Shown: positions 54,640-60,065 of the stretch, one piece after another | How the letters are laid out: each line of letters starts with the position of its first letter | Numbering within the stretch: the stretch's first letter is position 1 | Assembly (NCBI RefSeq): GCF_005503625.1 | Contig: NZ_SCMX01000036.1 | Location: 1-64,000 of the forward strand | DNA: 64,000 nucleotides | Direction: 5' to 3' | Origin: Cupriavidus sp. 2SB | Lineage (GTDB): Bacteria > Pseudomonadota > Gammaproteobacteria > Burkholderiales > Burkholderiaceae | Made by a program: the position numbers and the translations under genes | The notes under the pieces: generated by a model | The model's database searches: none | What the model was told of the DNA's origin: nothing | What the model saw: the letters and a program-made list of their open reading frames with translations, nothing else

Positions 54640-54957
54640 ATGCTGTTCGACGTCCGCACCTACACCTGCCATCCCGGCACGATCAAGAAACACCTGGCGC
54701 TGTACGCCGAACATGGGTTCGCGGTCCAGAGCCAGCACCTTGGCAAGCCGCTGGCTTACCTGCAGACCGAGACCGGCAACGTCAACAGCTACATGCACAT
54801 CTGGGTCTATGACAGCGCCGCCGATCGCGAAGCCAAGCGCCAGGCGCTGCAGAAGGACCCGGCCTGGGCAACTTACCTGAAGATGAGCGCCGAAGCGGGC
54901 TACCTGATCAGCCAGGAGAACAAGTTGATGACGCCGGTGTCGTTCTTCCAGCCGTAA
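54640..54957 (+). CDS. NIPSNAP family protein
   Basis: The 105-residue protein has the NIPSNAP alpha/beta fold (MLFDVRTYTCHPGTIKKHL at the start, MHIWVYDSAADREAKRQAL in the middle). Such proteins are small dimeric ferredoxin-like barrels; a few bind ligands or act in degradation pathways. It is paired with the upstream Bug gene and ends before a terminator. Confidence 0.85.
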   Translation: MLFDVRTYTCHPGTIKKHLALYAEHGFAVQSQHLGKPLAYLQTETGNVNSYMHIWVYDSAADREAKRQALQKDPAWATYLKMSAEAGYLISQENKLMTPVSFFQP

Positions 54958-54993
54958 ATACCGGCATTCACCCGCATCACCTGTAGTCCTGAA

Positions 54994-55022
54994 GGGGAGA
55001 GCATCGCGCTCCCCCCTTTTTT
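54994..55022 (+). terminator. Terminator after the Bug-NIPSNAP pair
   Basis: A 9-bp stem with one mismatch (54994-55002 and 55006-55014, loop ATC) is followed by TTTTTT. It isolates the upstream pair from the DUF3348 operon. Confidence 0.75.
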
Positions 55023-55081
55023 CATTGCTGTGCCCCGCGTCCGCGACCGTGTAAACTCCCCCCTTTTTTCATCCTGCCGAC

Positions 55082-55783
55082 ATGACGCAAGTGCCACAGC
55101 GCACGGGTTTCAGCGGCCCGAAACTGCTCCGCCTGCTGGCGCGCCTGACCGACGCCGGAACCTCCGGCGCCGCGCCATCGCTGTCCGCCGTGATGAGCCG
55201 GTGGCTGGGCTGGACCGACGCCATTGCGCTGTCAACCGCCCTGTCGACCCCGCCGGGCAGCCATTCGGCCGATGTGCCGTCCCGCGCACCGGTGCGCGGA
55301 AATGCCAGCGTGAACCTGGACGCCGCCGGCACACACGTGCGCAACATGCTGACCGTGGCGATTACCGGACAAGGCGCCTCGTCAGACAGCCGTCGCCGCA
55401 TGCCGGCGCGTCAGATTGCGCCCGATCCGGTCGACGTGGATTTCGCCGTCCATCGCCAGCGCTACGTCACGCTGCAAATGCAGATGGAGCGCGAGATTGC
55501 TGGCCTGCGCGCGCGACTGCGCACGGCGCTGGCATCGAAATCGCCGCAGGCTGCAAGGCTGGCGATGCTGGATTCGGTCATGGAACAGGTGCTCGGCGCA
55601 CGCGAACAGGCCGTGCTGGCCGCCGTGCCCGGCATGTTGGAACCGCATTTCACCAGGCTGCGCGGCGCGGAAGGCGCGTGGCTGAACGTGTTTCGCACGG
55701 ATATGCAGAGCGTGCTGCTGGCCGAGCTGGAGATCCGCTTCCAGCCCGTGGATGCACTGCTCGCTGCCTTGCGCGAGAACTGA
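55082..55783 (+). CDS. DUF3348 family protein, first gene of a putative motor cassette
   Basis: The 233-residue cytoplasmic protein has no signal or membrane segment. The N-terminal part is Ala/Ser-rich (GPKLLRLLARLTDAG), and the C-terminal half is helical with a conserved-looking DVDFAVHRQRYVTLQMQMER and LEIRFQPVDALLAAL. It matches the DUF3348 family by pattern; function is unknown. It is the first of four genes with short gaps or overlaps, so it likely assists the MotA/MotB-like pair downstream. Confidence 0.75.
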   Translation: MTQVPQRTGFSGPKLLRLLARLTDAGTSGAAPSLSAVMSRWLGWTDAIALSTALSTPPGSHSADVPSRAPVRGNASVNLDAAGTHVRNMLTVAITGQGASSDSRRRMPARQIAPDPVDVDFAVHRQRYVTLQMQMEREIAGLRARLRTALASKSPQAARLAMLDSVMEQVLGAREQAVLAAVPGMLEPHFTRLRGAEGAWLNVFRTDMQSVLLAELEIRFQPVDALLAALREN

Positions 55784-55804
55784 TCGATTGACGATTGGAA
55801 AGAT

Positions 55805-57973
55805 ATGAACAGACAACTCACACCACTCGTCGCACCCGTAGTCTTTCTGGCAGGCCTGGCCGTCGTGGGTTGGGTCGGCTTCGGTTATGCCGGGACGAAT
55901 GCGCTGGCGCTGGCCGTCACGCTGTTGATCGGCGGCTTCTACGTCGGCGGCGCGCTGGAACTGCACCGCTATCGGAAGGCCACGCCCACGCTGACCGCTG
56001 CACTGGCCGATCTCACTACGCCACCGGCCAACCTTGGCGCGTGGCTGGATCGTCTGCATCCGAGCCTGCGCAATGCCGTGCGTCTGCGCGTGGAAGGCGA
56101 GCGCGTTGCGCTGCCCGGGCCGTCGATGACGCCCTATATCGTAGGGCTGCTGGTGCTGCTGGGCATGCTCGGCACCTTCCTGGGCATGGTGGGCACGCTG
56201 CGCACCACCGGCGTGGCGCTGGAGAGTGCCGCCGACCTGCAGGCCATCCGCGCCTCGCTGGCGGCACCGGTAAAGAGCCTTGGCTTTGCGTTCGGCACAT
56301 CGGTGGCAGGCGTGGCCACCTCGGCCATGCTGGGCTTGCTCTCGACACTTGCCCGCCGCGAACGCATGCAGGCAGCCCAGCGGCTGGACGCGCGCATCGC
56401 CACCACGCTGCGCGTGCATTCCCGCCATCACCAGAACGAGACGGTCTTCGCGCTGCTGCAACGACAGGCCGAACTGATGCCCGCACTTGTGGATCGGCTC
56501 GATACCATGGCCGCGACGATGACCCGACAGAGCGAAGCACTCGGCGAGCGCCTGTCGGCCAGCCAGGACGCCTTCCATGCGCGTACCGACATCGCCTATG
56601 CGCAGCTCGCCGATACCGTGGGGCAATCGTTGAAGGAAGGCATTGCCGACAGTGCCCGTGCGGCCAGCGCAGCGATCCAGCCAGCCGTGGACACGACGAT
56701 GGCGGGCCTTGCGCGCGAAGCCACCGCACTGCGCGACACCGTGCGCGATACGCTGCATGAGTCGATTCAGGTGACGTTGATGCAAACCGTTCAGCAGCAT
56801 CTCGACGGTGTCTCCACGCGTTTCGACACCACCACAACCACCGTTGCCGAGACCTTGCGCAGCGCACTAGCCGATCAACAGCAAGCGAACATTGCGCTGA
56901 CCTCCGACCTGCGCACGTCGCTCGACGGCTACACCGAGACCTTCGCGCAGCGCTCGGCAGCACTGGTCGATGGCATCGGCACACGTCTTGATGCGGCAAC
57001 CACACGTGCAGCGCAGACGTGGGACACCGCCCTGTCGCGCCTCGAACAGACGGGCGAAGCACTCGCCAGCGCCAACCGCGAGGCCATGACCGAAGCCTCC
57101 ACGGTCTTCGCGCAACACACGGCAGGTATCGCCGATACGGTCAGCCAAGGGCACGCGAATCTGCAATCGCAACTGGCCGCGCAGGAAACTGCACGCCAGA
57201 CGGCCCTCGCCACGCGCGACGAACAACGCCTCACCGCCTGGCACGAAACGCTCGCTGCCATGGCCGCCACGATGCGCGAGCAATGGCAGCAGGCCAGCAC
57301 GCAATCGGCCGATCACCAGCGCGAGATCCGCGACGCCCTCACCCAGACCGCCGCCGATATTGCCACGCACACGCAGCAGCAAGCCAGCGGCACCATTGCC
57401 GAGGTCGCGCGTCTTGCGCAGATTGCCACCGAGGCGCCGAAGGCCGCCGCCGATGTCATCGCCGAACTGCGCCAGAAACTCACTGACGGCATGGCGCGTG
57501 ACAACGTCATGCTGGAGGAACGTGGTCGCCTGCTGGAGACTCTCGGCACCCTGCTCGACGCCGTGAACCACGCTTCCACCGAACAACGCACCGTTGTTGA
57601 CGGACTCGTCACCACCACCGCCGACCTGCTGGAACGCGTGGGCACGCGCTTCACCGAACAGGTGGCGCAGGAGACGGGCAAGCTCGATGACATCGCCGCG
57701 CAGGTCACCGGCAGTGCGGTAGAGGTGGCGAGCCTGGGCGAGGCATTCGGCGCAGCCGTGCAACAGTTCAGCGCATCGAACGACAAACTCGCGGAGCACC
57801 TGATCCGTATCGAAGGCGCGCTCGACAAGTCGATGGCGCGTAGCGACGAACAACTGGCTTACTACGTGGCGCAAGCGCGTGAAGTGGTGGATCTCAGCAT
57901 GCTGTCGCAGAAGCAGATCCTGGAGAACCTGCAGCAATTCTCCGCGCAGCAGGCGGGCGCCGAGGCAGCATGA
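55805..57973 (+). CDS. DUF802 membrane protein, MotA/ExbB/TolQ-like with a long coiled-coil tail
   Basis: The 722-residue inner-membrane protein has four predicted segments (about 8-28, 31-52, 110-133, 156-183). The third, PYIVGLLVLLGMLGTFLGMV, matches the motif of ion-channel subunits of MotA, TolQ, ExbB and ZorA. The fourth, with FAFGTSVAGVATSAMLGLL, matches their channel-lining helix. A cytoplasmic tail from about residue 190 to 722 is Ala/Gln/Thr-rich, repetitive and predicted coiled coil, and contains the DUF802 repeats. Its stop overlaps the next start as ATGA. Motor function is inferred. Confidence 0.82.
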   Translation: MNRQLTPLVAPVVFLAGLAVVGWVGFGYAGTNALALAVTLLIGGFYVGGALELHRYRKATPTLTAALADLTTPPANLGAWLDRLHPSLRNAVRLRVEGERVALPGPSMTPYIVGLLVLLGMLGTFLGMVGTLRTTGVALESAADLQAIRASLAAPVKSLGFAFGTSVAGVATSAMLGLLSTLARRERMQAAQRLDARIATTLRVHSRHHQNETVFALLQRQAELMPALVDRLDTMAATMTRQSEALGERLSASQDAFHARTDIAYAQLADTVGQSLKEGIADSARAASAAIQPAVDTTMAGLAREATALRDTVRDTLHESIQVTLMQTVQQHLDGVSTRFDTTTTTVAETLRSALADQQQANIALTSDLRTSLDGYTETFAQRSAALVDGIGTRLDAATTRAAQTWDTALSRLEQTGEALASANREAMTEASTVFAQHTAGIADTVSQGHANLQSQLAAQETARQTALATRDEQRLTAWHETLAAMAATMREQWQQASTQSADHQREIRDALTQTAADIATHTQQQASGTIAEVARLAQIATEAPKAAADVIAELRQKLTDGMARDNVMLEERGRLLETLGTLLDAVNHASTEQRTVVDGLVTTTADLLERVGTRFTEQVAQETGKLDDIAAQVTGSAVEVASLGEAFGAAVQQFSASNDKLAEHLIRIEGALDKSMARSDEQLAYYVAQAREVVDLSMLSQKQILENLQQFSAQQAGAEAA

Positions 57974-58614
57974 CGGACGATTTCGATGCTGGCGTAGAGC
58001 CGACCGTTCCGGTCTGGGCTGTGTTCGGTGACCTGATGTCGGTCATGCTGGGCGCCTTCGTTCTGGTGCTGCTGGGTGTCATCGGCGTGCAGATGGAGCT
58101 GTCAGCGCGCCTGGAAAACGAGGTCAAGCATCGGCAGGAAGAACTGAAACGGCGCCAGACGCTGGAAGAGGCGCTTGCCGGACCGCTGTCGGCTGGCCGC
58201 GTCACGCTCAAGGATGGGCGTATCGGCATCAGCGGCAATGTGCTGTTCGCGCTGAACTCGGACCAGTTGCAGCCGGAAGGCCGCACCCTGCTCAAGAGCC
58301 TGGCCGAGCCGCTATCGGCCTATCTTGGCGCACGCGATGAAATCCTGATGGTGAGCGGCTTCACCGACGATCAGCAGGTGCGCGAAGGCAACCGTCGCTT
58401 TGCCGATAACCTCGAGCTGTCGGCCCAGCGCGCACTCACCGTGACCCGTGCGCTGATCGATGCAGGCGTGCCCGCTGCCTCGATCTTCTCGGCGGCATTT
58501 GGCGCGCAGCAGCCGGTGGCATCGAACGCCACCGAAGAGAGCCGCGCGAAGAATCGTCGCGTGGAAATCGCGCCGGTGCCGAGAGTGTCGGGTGATGCAA
58601 AACCGCATGCATAG
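57970..58614 (+). CDS. OmpA-family peptidoglycan-binding protein, MotB/ZorB-like
   Basis: The 214-residue protein has one N-terminal membrane segment (about 15-41) in which VWAVFGDLMSVMLGAFVLVL places Asp21 where MotB and ZorB keep their proton-carrying aspartate. A short periplasmic linker is followed by an OmpA C-terminal domain (VLFALNSDQLQPEGRTLLKS; NLELSAQRALTVTRALI; RAKNRRVEI). It would anchor the complex to the cell wall. It is coupled to the DUF802 gene by an ATGA overlap. Confidence 0.87.
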   Translation: MTDDFDAGVEPTVPVWAVFGDLMSVMLGAFVLVLLGVIGVQMELSARLENEVKHRQEELKRRQTLEEALAGPLSAGRVTLKDGRIGISGNVLFALNSDQLQPEGRTLLKSLAEPLSAYLGARDEILMVSGFTDDQQVREGNRRFADNLELSAQRALTVTRALIDAGVPAASIFSAAFGAQQPVASNATEESRAKNRRVEIAPVPRVSGDAKPHA

Positions 58615-59236
58615 CGAAGCCGCAAGCGATCACGACACCCTGCTCGACGACTGGCGCGACAGCGGCGCCGATCGTTTGGACCCGGTACGCTTTCGCCTGA
58701 TCGAAGCAATGGCGAGACGTGCACGCGACCACAACGGCGAAACGGGACGGCTGCTGCAATCGCGTATCGCGCAATTGGTTGCCGAGTATCGTGAAGCATT
58801 GACGCGCGCCTCGACCGAGACATCACCAACCGAATCCTCCACGCCATCATCCCCCGCACTCGCCGACCTCGCAGCACTCACGAGACGACTCGGTGCGCGC
58901 ACGCATCCGATGGCAGCACCTGCCGCCAACGCACCGCATCGCCTCCACGCCGCAGAACCGGCGCTGGCCGACTACTTCCGCGACACACTCGCGCGCGTCA
59001 GTGTCGACCGCCAGTTGCGCGAATCACAGGCCGTCGTACCGGAAAACGCAGGACCGCTGAACACGAACCAACTCGTGCATCGCGCGCTCTCGCTGATGCA
59101 GGAAGTCTCGCCCGGCTATCTCGAACAGTTCCTGTCGTACGTGGATGCCCTGGCATGGCTGGAAGGTATGCACACGATCTCGCTCGTGCCTGAGAAGAGG
59201 ACGCGTGCGAAGGCGGGCAAGGCGCCGAGCGCGTAG
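58595..59236 (+). CDS. DUF2894 family protein
   Basis: The 213-residue cytoplasmic protein begins MQNRMHSEAASDHDT and overlaps the OmpA-type gene by 20 bp. Two helical blocks (DPVRFRLIEAMARRARDHNG; LVHRALSLMQEVSPGYLEQF) flank a Ser/Thr/Pro-rich linker. The C-terminus is basic. The family is known only as DUF2894, found next to DUF3348, DUF802 and OmpA genes; no function is established. An alternative start at 58607 is possible. Confidence 0.75.
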   Translation: MQNRMHSEAASDHDTLLDDWRDSGADRLDPVRFRLIEAMARRARDHNGETGRLLQSRIAQLVAEYREALTRASTETSPTESSTPSSPALADLAALTRRLGARTHPMAAPAANAPHRLHAAEPALADYFRDTLARVSVDRQLRESQAVVPENAGPLNTNQLVHRALSLMQEVSPGYLEQFLSYVDALAWLEGMHTISLVPEKRTRAKAGKAPSA

Positions 59237-59363
59237 GAAACTGCGCGCGGTGGATGAAGGCCGTGGACGGCGTTGGCGTACACATAGCGACGCGTCGCGC
59301 ATACAAAGCGAAACGCCCGTAGTAATATGCTCGGCATTGCATCCTGTGTCCTTCCCCGCCCAC

Positions 59364-60065
59364 ATGCCAGAAGAAAAGAAGAGCCTGTCCGAAACCATCC
59401 GCACCGCCATCGAGCAGGACATTCTCTCGGGCAAGCTGCCCAGCGGCAGTCAGCTGGAAGAACAACAGCTTCTGGCACGTTTCAATGTCTCGCGCACGCC
59501 CGTGCGCGAGGCGCTGATCCAGTTGGAGTCTGCTGGGCTGGTCGATCTGGTGCCGCGCCAGGGCGCAATCGTCAAGTCGATCTCGTTGCGCGAGTACGTT
59601 GCCATGAGCGAGATCCTCGTGCAACTCGAAGCCCTCGCGGCGAGGCTCGCTGCGCGGCGTATGTCTGCGGCGCAGCGTCAACAGATGCAGGATGCCTACG
59701 AAGCCTGCAAGCGCGCGGCGGAAACTGCGGATTCGGATGCCTATCGCACCGCAAACGACCTGTTTCATCGCGTGATCTACGAAGCCAGTTGCAACGACAT
59801 CCTGTCGCGCCAGATCCGCACGATGCGCGCACGCATGCGCGGCATGCGCGATCTGCGTTTCCAGAAGCCTGCGCGTATCCTGGCATCGCTTGAGGAACAC
59901 GGACACGTGATGCGCGCCATTCTCGAAGGCAGCGAGGATGCAGCAGGCGACGCGATGATCCGGCACATCGCCACGGGCGGCGACGTCTATGCGGACATGA
60001 TCGCCTCGATGCCCGCCGAGGCCGACACGCGCAAGCGCACGCGCGGCCTATCCGACATCGAATAG
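59364..60065 (+). CDS. GntR-family regulator, FCD subgroup
   Basis: The 233-residue protein has the winged helix (LEEQQLLARFNVSRTPVREALIQLESAG) and the FCD domain with metal-binding His residues (NDLFHRVIY, EEHGHVMRAI, IRHIATGG). It is convergent with the Bug gene, 1 bp apart, and probably controls the CoA-transferase, Bug, quinone reductase and GST genes through GTATAC-type sites. The start at MPEEKKSLSE is chosen by homology. Confidence 0.86.
   Translation: MPEEKKSLSETIRTAIEQDILSGKLPSGSQLEEQQLLARFNVSRTPVREALIQLESAGLVDLVPRQGAIVKSISLREYVAMSEILVQLEALAARLAARRMSAAQRQQMQDAYEACKRAAETADSDAYRTANDLFHRVIYEASCNDILSRQIRTMRARMRGMRDLRFQKPARILASLEEHGHVMRAILEGSEDAAGDAMIRHIATGGDVYADMIASMPAEADTRKRTRGLSDIE

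What the first reader, a model, noticed from the sequence alone, without database searches (positions are those of the whole stretch)
55082..59236. MotAB/ZorAB-like motor cassette with DUF3348 and DUF2894 partners
Four tightly spaced genes encode a cytoplasmic DUF3348 protein, a four-helix DUF802 membrane protein with a MotA/TolQ/ExbB-type motif and a tail of about 530 residues, an OmpA-type protein with a MotB-like Asp21, and a DUF2894 protein. Family knowledge: ion-driven motors pair a MotA-like channel with a MotB-like peptidoglycan binder, and the Zorya defence motor ZorAB has the same long tail and similar sizes. ZorC/ZorD-type effectors are absent. Inference: this is a separate, little-described tail-driven motor with its own two partners, possibly in envelope or defence function.
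Basis: partly seen in the sequence, partly recalled or inferred. Interest (0 to 1): 0.78.

Follow-up and report, generated by a model that had tools for sequence, protein, structure and literature searches.

The report
Zorya III motor with step-length tail
The four genes are a Zorya type III anti-phage motor, a defence system already named and tested by others; new here is that its long tail varies among species in exact repeated modules that keep the coiled-coil phase.

Summary
Window 55082-59236 (Cupriavidus) carries four collinear genes that match the ZorG3/DUF3348, ZorA3, ZorB3 and ZorF3/DUF2894 models of PADLOC-DB. This is Zorya type III, named in 2021 and shown to protect E. coli from phages (PMC8565338). 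Asp21 is invariant in 16 of 16 homologues and its motif present in 18 of 18 distant ones. DUF802, DUF3348 and DUF2894 occur together in 51 of 60 congeneric genomes and are absent together from 9; the motor tracks rpoB (r=0.80).

New, as far as my searches show: ZorA3 tail length is quantised. The commonest unrepeated length is 467 residues; 73 of 98 repeat-bearing tails equal 467+n·u exactly for their own tandem unit u (about 1.3 expected). Near-identical motors differ by whole modules. Units are near-whole multiples of 3.634 residues: coiled-coil phase is kept while length doubles. The window's own tail is short, unrepeated and off this phase. DUF3348 and DUF2894 are predicted all-helical, without a fold match; the effector is unknown.

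The parts
55082..55783 (+). DUF3348 protein, 233 aa (ZorG3 in PADLOC-DB labels; 'ZorF' in the text of Payne 2021)
   Evidence: PF11828 E=5.8e-78; PDLC00658 ZorG3 255.5 bits; AF2 model all-helical, pLDDT 77, pTM 0.70
55805..57973 (+). ZorA3 (DUF802 protein), 722 aa: MotA/TolQ/ExbB-type motor (about residues 1-200) plus long tail
   Evidence: PDLC00650 ZorA3 1113 bits; NF033915 ZorA_2 30 bits over 113-248, below its cut-off of 100
56405..57970 (+). ZorA3 tail (522 residues), single-copy, no internal tandem module; hydrophobic period 3.62
   Evidence: anchor-to-anchor length 490, self-repeat score 5.0 (30 shuffled tails reached at most 6.8)
56810..57124 (+). two DUF802 stretches in the tail (56810-56968, 56978-57124)
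   Evidence: 67.5 and 42.9 bits
57206..57448 (+). approximate stretch (about 80 residues) that is tandemly repeated in related species but single here; bounds read by eye from the tail sequences
   Evidence: unit 80 in 8 tails of the same rpoB clade
57470..57970 (+). distal tail (about residues 556-722) that lies beyond the repeats in 97 of 98 repeat-bearing relatives; part of a conserved C-terminal stretch (residues 496-718)
   Evidence: repeats end at least 135 residues before the C-terminal anchor in 97 of 98, 74 in L089; 380 bits, residues 496-718; 78 of 225 columns at least 95% conserved in 115 proteins
57970..58614 (+). ZorB3: N-terminal hydrophobic helix plus OmpA peptidoglycan-binding domain, 214 aa; overlaps ZorA3 by 4 nt
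   Evidence: PDLC00651 ZorB3 376 bits; NF006547 381 bits; OmpA 92-196
58030..58032 (+). Asp21 codon of ZorB3, expected ion-binding residue
   Evidence: invariant 16 of 16, motif 18 of 18; same position number as ZorB-II D21 in PMC11890865, not aligned to it here
58607..59236 (+). DUF2894 protein, 209 aa from the start at 58607 (213 aa if 58595) (ZorF3 in PADLOC-DB labels; 'ZorG' in Payne 2021)
   Evidence: PF11445 E=4.7e-57; PDLC00652 ZorF3 227 bits; AF2 all-helical, pLDDT 72, pTM 0.40

Best explanation
It is a Zorya type III system. Inferred by homology: five ZorA3 and two ZorB3 form an inner-membrane ion motor; ZorB3 anchors in peptidoglycan and carries the ion-binding Asp21; on envelope disturbance by an injecting phage, ion flow turns the ZorA3 ring and its cytoplasmic tail. 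Inferred from this work: the tail is a continuous, phase-kept coiled-coil shaft that carries rotation or strain to a conserved distal end, where the helical DUF3348 and DUF2894 proteins act as adaptors or regulators, not enzymes. Shaft length can change by whole modules (398-998 residues, about 60 to 150 nm at 0.15 nm per helical residue); what is kept is register and the distal end. The killing step (a recruited host enzyme, or ion leak through the motor) is unknown. Shown: identity, gene linkage, Asp21 conservation, tail quantisation and phase. Not shown: assembly, rotation, docking, defence by this copy.
For: Dedicated PADLOC models match all four, ZorA3 at 1113 bits. Gene order G-A-B-F in 74 of 80 loci; 5 of the other 6 start near a contig end. 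ZorA/ZorB overlap by 4 nt in 127 of 132 complete loci, some genomes counted twice. Type III protects E. coli from phages. In types I/II ion flow, peptidoglycan binding and the ZorA tail matter for defence (PMC11890865). Tail: 96 of 115 distinct tails have a strong internal repeat (score >30; 30 shuffled tails reached at most 6.8); 73 of 98 fit 467+n·u exactly versus 1.3 expected; ten unit sizes share phase at 3.634 residues, R=0.96, 0 of 10,000 in each of two simulations; sequences not used to fit that period agree, p=0.003 for 14 lengths and p=0.001 for 6 units (those 18 proteins are at most 64% identical to the first set); hydrophobic period measured separately peaks at 3.65. C-terminal stretch mean majority 0.81 versus motor 0.84. 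Partner models have no fold match at E<=0.001.
Against: No test of defence for any Cupriavidus copy was found. Near-core, mostly vertical inheritance and metabolic neighbours are unusual for a defence system. In B. cenocepacia only the first one or two genes of the Zorya III operon changed during infection. The window's own tail is 23 residues off the 467 base (6.33 turns) and 12 off the 478 of its clade-mate G046 (3.30 turns), so it breaks the phase rule. 25 of 98 repeat tails miss the exact 467 rule; 13 of these fit another base (+11 or +7), 12 are unexplained. Unit sizes are not all independent (29x3=87, 62+87=149, 51+80=131, 51+62=113). Two of 9 ZorA1 proteins also have tail repeats, so the trait is not strictly type III. 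DUF2894 model has low pTM (0.40), so 'no enzyme fold' is weak there.
Confidence: 0.6

Rival explanations
1. Ion-leak device: on infection the ZorAB3 motor opens, the tail and partners only gate it, and loss of membrane potential stops the infected cell; no nuclease is needed.
For: No enzyme-like fold match for either partner. Payne 2021 cites a proton-channel/abortive model and proposes that the type III partners regulate ZorAB.
Against: In type II the effector is the soluble nickase ZorE, and type I carries a predicted helicase, ZorD. A pure leak would not need a tail of 398-998 residues whose distal stretch is about as conserved as the motor.
Confidence: 0.2
2. Resident envelope or housekeeping motor that was later filed under defence because of ZorAB similarity; phage protection in E. 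coli is a by-product of over-expression.
For: Present in 51 of 60 congeneric genomes (47 of 54 good ones), one locus each; distances track rpoB, r=0.80, 0 of 2000 Mantel permutations; metabolic neighbours, no defence match among 10 flanking proteins; no full-length ZorB3 match in 50,697 phage records.
Against: Patchy in wider samples (24 of 399 in the order, 8 of 369 in the class, own genome included in both); scattered absences inside the genus, among them the window's two nearest relatives; direct phage protection by a Stenotrophomonas copy.
Confidence: 0.15
3. The tail ladder is neutral: unequal crossing-over between similar coiled-coil repeats makes in-phase duplications, and length or phase has no functional meaning. 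(This rival concerns the tail only and can hold together with the others.)
For: Units differ between clades and copy number changes between near-identical motors. DUF802 matches are themselves paired at 55 residues, so the tail is repetitive at base.
Against: Phase kept at one period over many unit sizes and in sequences not used to fit it; the same 467-equivalent base is found in another family of the class (L277, L278); within the few same-species sets length was the same (3 of 3, 2 of 2, 2 of 2). None of these separates mutation bias from selection.
Confidence: 0.4
4. A separate motor unrelated to Zorya.
For: No ZorC, ZorD or ZorE match nearby.
Against: All four proteins match dedicated Zorya III models; ZorA3 also weakly matches ZorA_1/ZorA_2 models.
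Confidence: 0.02

Closest known systems
Zorya type III (Payne et al. 2021; PADLOC-DB)
   Same: Same four families in one operon; all four proteins match its models.
   Different: Species; tail shorter than in most relatives and without internal module. Payne's text calls DUF3348 'ZorF' and DUF2894 'ZorG'; the PADLOC-DB 2.0.0 models label them the other way round.
Zorya types I and II (ZorABCD; ZorABE)
   Same: MotA/MotB-like ZorAB, ZorB Asp (D24/D21), peptidoglycan-binding domain, long ZorA tail.
   Different: No ZorC/ZorD/ZorE; no recognisable nuclease or helicase. Of 9 ZorA1 proteins checked 7 had no internal repeat, against 96 of 115 ZorA3 tails with one. PMC11890865 says that component size is well conserved within each of families I and II; ZorA3 tails span 398-998.
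Flagellar stator MotAB, ExbBD, TolQR
   Same: Ion-motor logic (recalled): MotA-like channel, single-TM partner with Asp, periplasmic domain.
   Different: Long cytoplasmic tail; in the PDB search of ZorB, matches to MotB-type chains lie mainly in the OmpA-type domain, and two ZorB chains (8qyd, 8vvn) are matched over the N-terminus.
Tandem-repeat coiled-coil rulers such as phage tape-measure proteins (recalled, not tested)
   Same: Length set by repeated helical units.
   Different: Membrane motor tail, not a virion ruler.

Membership tests
Zorya type III | ZorA with MotA/TolQ/ExbB motor and long tail | tested here: met
   by sequence profile: PDLC00650 1113 bits
Zorya type III | ZorB: N-terminal helix with Asp plus OmpA-type domain | tested here: met
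Zorya type III | flanking DUF3348 and DUF2894 genes in one operon | tested here: met
   with DUF802 in 51 of 60 genomes and joint absence in 9; operon inferred from spacing, no transcript data
Zorya type III | anti-phage activity | not testable with these tools
   shown by others for a Stenotrophomonas system; not for this locus
Zorya type III | ZorA5B2 assembly (shown by others for types I and II) | not testable with these tools
   only single chains can be predicted here
Zorya type I | ZorC and ZorD genes | tested here: not met
   no PADLOC match in 10 flanking proteins; none of the four operon proteins matches ZorC/ZorD
Zorya type II | ZorE HNH nickase gene | tested here: not met
   partners have no nuclease match
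Flagellar MotAB stator | MotB/MotA at equivalog level | tested here: not met
   ZorB scores far below MotB equivalog cut-offs (63 of 301 and 55 of 300 bits) and above that of NF006547 (381 of 194); ZorA has no MotA match at E<=1

The most novel reading that the evidence does not exclude
Zorya III motors drive a phase-locked, modular shaft: evolution changes its length freely, up to about twofold, by duplicating whole-turn coiled-coil modules, while helical register and the distal end are held fixed. The tail would then be a mechanical transmission (torque or twist) from envelope to cytoplasm, not a length ruler, and DUF3348/DUF2894 a new kind of non-enzymatic output stage.
Probability: 0.45. 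Interest if true: 0.72.

Novelty: new member of a known kind. Interest (0 to 1): 0.5.

Why it matters
How a Zorya motor in the envelope signals to an effector inside the cell is open, and type III has no recognised effector. A natural series of tails that differ by whole modules, on motors up to about 99% identical, is a ready experiment: it separates 'length matters' from 'phase matters' and points to the distal tail as the docking site. Near-core, mostly vertical inheritance in Cupriavidus also suggests that a defence system can be a resident trait and not only island cargo.

Tried and rejected
Hidden enzyme in the partners: AF2 models of DUF3348 (46 sequences) and DUF2894 (49 sequences) searched with Foldseek against PDB gave 0 matches at E<=0.001 each; profiles against PDB sequences gave nothing convincing (best E 0.14 and 0.052).

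Conserved fifth gene: the commonest neighbour (17 of the 58 loci that entered the flank clustering, opposite strand) is an amidohydrolase; other tested neighbour groups are TctC, GntR/UTRA and alcohol dehydrogenase (6 proteins): metabolic. ORF picking in that flank scan was crude (antisense ORFs in GC-rich DNA), so synteny is under-counted.

Phage or mobile origin: no full ZorB3 in the phage collection (1 match, OmpA domain only); 27 of 72,556 plasmid records, all at least 366 kb long.

ZorA1 control through plasmids failed (no match); the control rests on 9 proteins, all with a ZorA1 model as best PADLOC match. A tenth locus, L177, gave a wrong frame and was dropped. A first pass had taken wrong frames for some loci; one search replaces it. 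No ZorA2 control was run.

First rpoB tree had a strand error in some sequences; one search replaces it. Rows dropped before counts: ZorA frames of 600 aa or less, exact duplicates, and one of 116 without anchors; three of 60 genomes do not enter the rpoB tree (G045 and G047 without a match, G051 with a fragment). Modulo tests of tail lengths on 7, 11, 18, 22, 33, 44 and 55 residues showed no single unit. The test on all 41 positive length increments was weaker than that on units (R=0.50, simulated p=0.0004).

One search scanned an arbitrary 33-residue stretch and has no bearing.
Full report
WHAT IS THERE. Four genes run in one direction: DUF3348 protein (55082-55783), DUF802 protein (55805-57973), OmpA-type protein (57970-58614) and DUF2894 protein (58607-59236). 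The last start is my correction: the mechanical ORF begins at 58460, but many relatives start 7-8 nt before the ZorB end and the window has ATGCATAG there. No sigma-70-like promoter or terminator match was found in 54900-59500, which says little for this organism.

WHAT IT IS. PADLOC-DB has dedicated models that match each of the four: ZorG3 (255 bits), ZorA3 (1113), ZorB3 (376), ZorF3 (227). Three further papers mention Zorya in related contexts (passages only): B. cenocepacia, C. necator H16, subtype not stated in the passage, and environmental soil isolates screened with a plasmid.

DISTRIBUTION. In 60 genomes of the genus, DUF802, DUF3348 and DUF2894 each occur in 51, and the same 9 lack all three; in genomes at least 90% complete and at most 5% contaminated, 47 of 54. 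Each carrier has one locus (G017 has an extra weak DUF2894 match; G043 a split DUF3348; G059 the operon on two contigs). In the order 24 of 399 genomes have DUF3348 (23 over the cut-off), in the class 8 of 369; both samples include the own genome. In 18 more distant loci from the order and class, G, motor, C-terminal stretch, ZorB and F were all found in 18 of 18; these loci had been chosen for having DUF3348.

INHERITANCE. On an rpoB tree of 57 congeneric genomes, ZorA-motor+ZorB distances correlate with rpoB distances (48 genomes, r=0.80, 0 of 2000 Mantel permutations as high; one search was wrong through a strand error). Seven absences fall at several places on that tree, which fits losses. 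Against a simple story for the window's own copy: its two nearest relatives by rpoB (G031, G001) lack the system, and its neighbours are not shared with the other loci, so re-acquisition from within the clade is not excluded. Neighbours are metabolic: in the window TonB receptor, AraC, LysR and GntR regulators, two TctC proteins, CoA-transferase, dehydrogenase and a NIPSNAP protein; none of 10 flanking proteins matches PADLOC. Annotated plasmid records show sugar transporters, transketolases and the like, with one IS5 transposase next to one copy. Not every copy has the same neighbours. I conclude: in this genus a resident, mostly vertically inherited system.

ASP21 AND MOTOR. Asp21 is invariant in 16 of 16 ZorB homologues, and W..F.D is present in 18 of 18 distant ones. 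The motor stretch of ZorA (197 columns) has 93 columns at least 95% conserved in 115 proteins. ZorA3 matches the ZorA_2, ZorA_1 and ZorA_4 models weakly, below their cut-offs and mainly over the motor. The ZorAB complex could not be modelled with these tools.

THE TAIL. I measured ZorA tail length between a fixed motor anchor and a fixed C-terminal anchor in 115 distinct proteins (116 frames over 600 aa, one without anchors). Lengths run from 398 to 998 and pile up at 467, 554, 641, 728 and 815, with single tails at 902 and 989: a step of 87. The cause is tandem duplication: 96 of 115 tails have an internal repeat scoring above 30, while 30 shuffled tails reached at most 6.8. The unit differs by lineage: 87, 131, 80, 51, 29, 62, 149, 69, 113, 33 and a few more. 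For tails with a repeat score above 20, 73 of 98 equal 467 + n·u exactly, u being the unit found in that same protein; 1.3 are expected by chance. The base 467 was chosen after seeing the data; the 10 tails of that length have no repeat, and 7 more tails without a repeat have other lengths, the window's among them. Of the 25 misses, 6 fit base 478 (unit 80, the window's clade) and 7 fit base 474 (unit 131, mainly Achromobacter); 12 are unexplained: L037, L071, L044, L045, L108, L115, L148, L154, L156, L160, L089, L092. Base-length tails also occur in another family of the class (L277, L278: 497 motor-end to tip-end, the same as 467 on this scale), so 467 may be ancestral.

Motors at most 2.5% different can differ by 87, 80, 62, 58, 102 or 174 residues, i.e. 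whole units; the very closest pairs differ by 4 residues (732 against 728). Unit type largely follows the rpoB clades: within the genus 80 is found only in the window's clade, 149 and 62 in one clade each, 87 in more than one. In the few same-species sets available length was the same: P. caribensis 3 of 3, C. metallidurans 2 of 2, P. largidicola 2 of 2.

PHASE. Ten unit sizes line up at a period of 3.634 residues (resultant 0.96); none of 10,000 jittered and 10,000 uniform random sets scanned over 3.4-4.0 did as well. The hydrophobic pattern of the tails, measured separately, peaks at 3.65 on average (own tail 3.62). With the period fixed, 14 length differences among the 18 distant loci gave p=0.003 and 6 units not used in the fit (four from ZorA3, one of them from the first set; 138 from ZorA1; 44 seen in both) gave p=0.001; the 18 proteins are at most 64% identical to the first set. 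So modules are near-whole numbers of coiled-coil turns. Caveats: the ten units are not all independent (29x3=87; 62+87=149; 51+80=131; 51+62=113); the test on all 41 positive increments is weaker (R=0.50, p=0.0004); the window's own tail breaks the rule (+23 from base, 6.33 turns; +12 from its clade-mate G046). Mutation bias (crossing-over between similar coiled-coil repeats) would also give in-phase units: that phase is kept is shown, the reason is not.

As a control, 7 of 9 ZorA1 proteins showed no internal repeat and 2 did (units 44 and 138, also near whole turns); all nine have a ZorA1 model as best PADLOC match. The control is small, and no ZorA2 set was checked.

The last 225 residues are about as conserved as the motor (mean majority 0.81 against 0.84; 78 columns at least 95%). 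In 97 of 98 repeat-bearing tails the repeats end at least 135 residues before the C-terminal anchor (74 in L089), so roughly the last 165 residues stay single. I read this as a docking end; that is inference.

PARTNERS. DUF3348 (pLDDT 77, pTM 0.70) and DUF2894 (pLDDT 72, pTM 0.40) are predicted all-helical with no PDB match at E<=0.001. Invariant residues in DUF3348 look mainly structural (W41, W44, R143, R147, E175 and others). No sign of a nuclease. With the low pTM of DUF2894, absence of a match is weak evidence there.

MECHANISM. Most likely: ZorA5B2 ion motor anchored in peptidoglycan, a phase-kept shaft, a conserved distal end, helical adaptors, unknown final effector (overall 0.6; identity alone about 0.97). 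Rivals: ion leak, housekeeping motor, neutral ladder.

NOVELTY. The cassette is known. My searches listed no open-access paper that I could recognise as describing ZorA3 tail repeats; most listed papers were seen as listings only. The Nature 2025 structure paper (Hu et al., known from reference lists) is not held and was not read.

Noticed in passing
window 55082-55783 and 58607-59236: Naming clash: Payne 2021 text calls DUF3348 ZorF and DUF2894 ZorG; the PADLOC-DB 2.0.0 models call DUF3348 ZorG3 and DUF2894 ZorF3.
   Followed up: yes
L178:1231-3261 and L181:1198-3531: Two of nine ZorA1 proteins also have tandem tail repeats (units 44 and 138), near whole turns of 3.634, so modular tails may reach beyond type III.
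   Followed up: partly
control genomes: The DUF2894 family gives a match over its cut-off in Corynebacterium glutamicum, which has no DUF802 or DUF3348 match in the same controls.
   Followed up: no
L116: A contig labelled as a Rudaea MAG carries ZorB3 77% identical to the window's, which suggests transfer between orders or a mis-binned contig.
   Followed up: no
L208:7319-9364: A gene annotated as elongation factor G (fusA_3) lies convergent and next to Zorya III in a Paraburkholderia plasmid.
   Followed up: no
L293, L294, L089: Some ZorA3 tails have short repeats of 22 or 44 residues (two or four hendecads), possibly the elementary building block.
   Followed up: no
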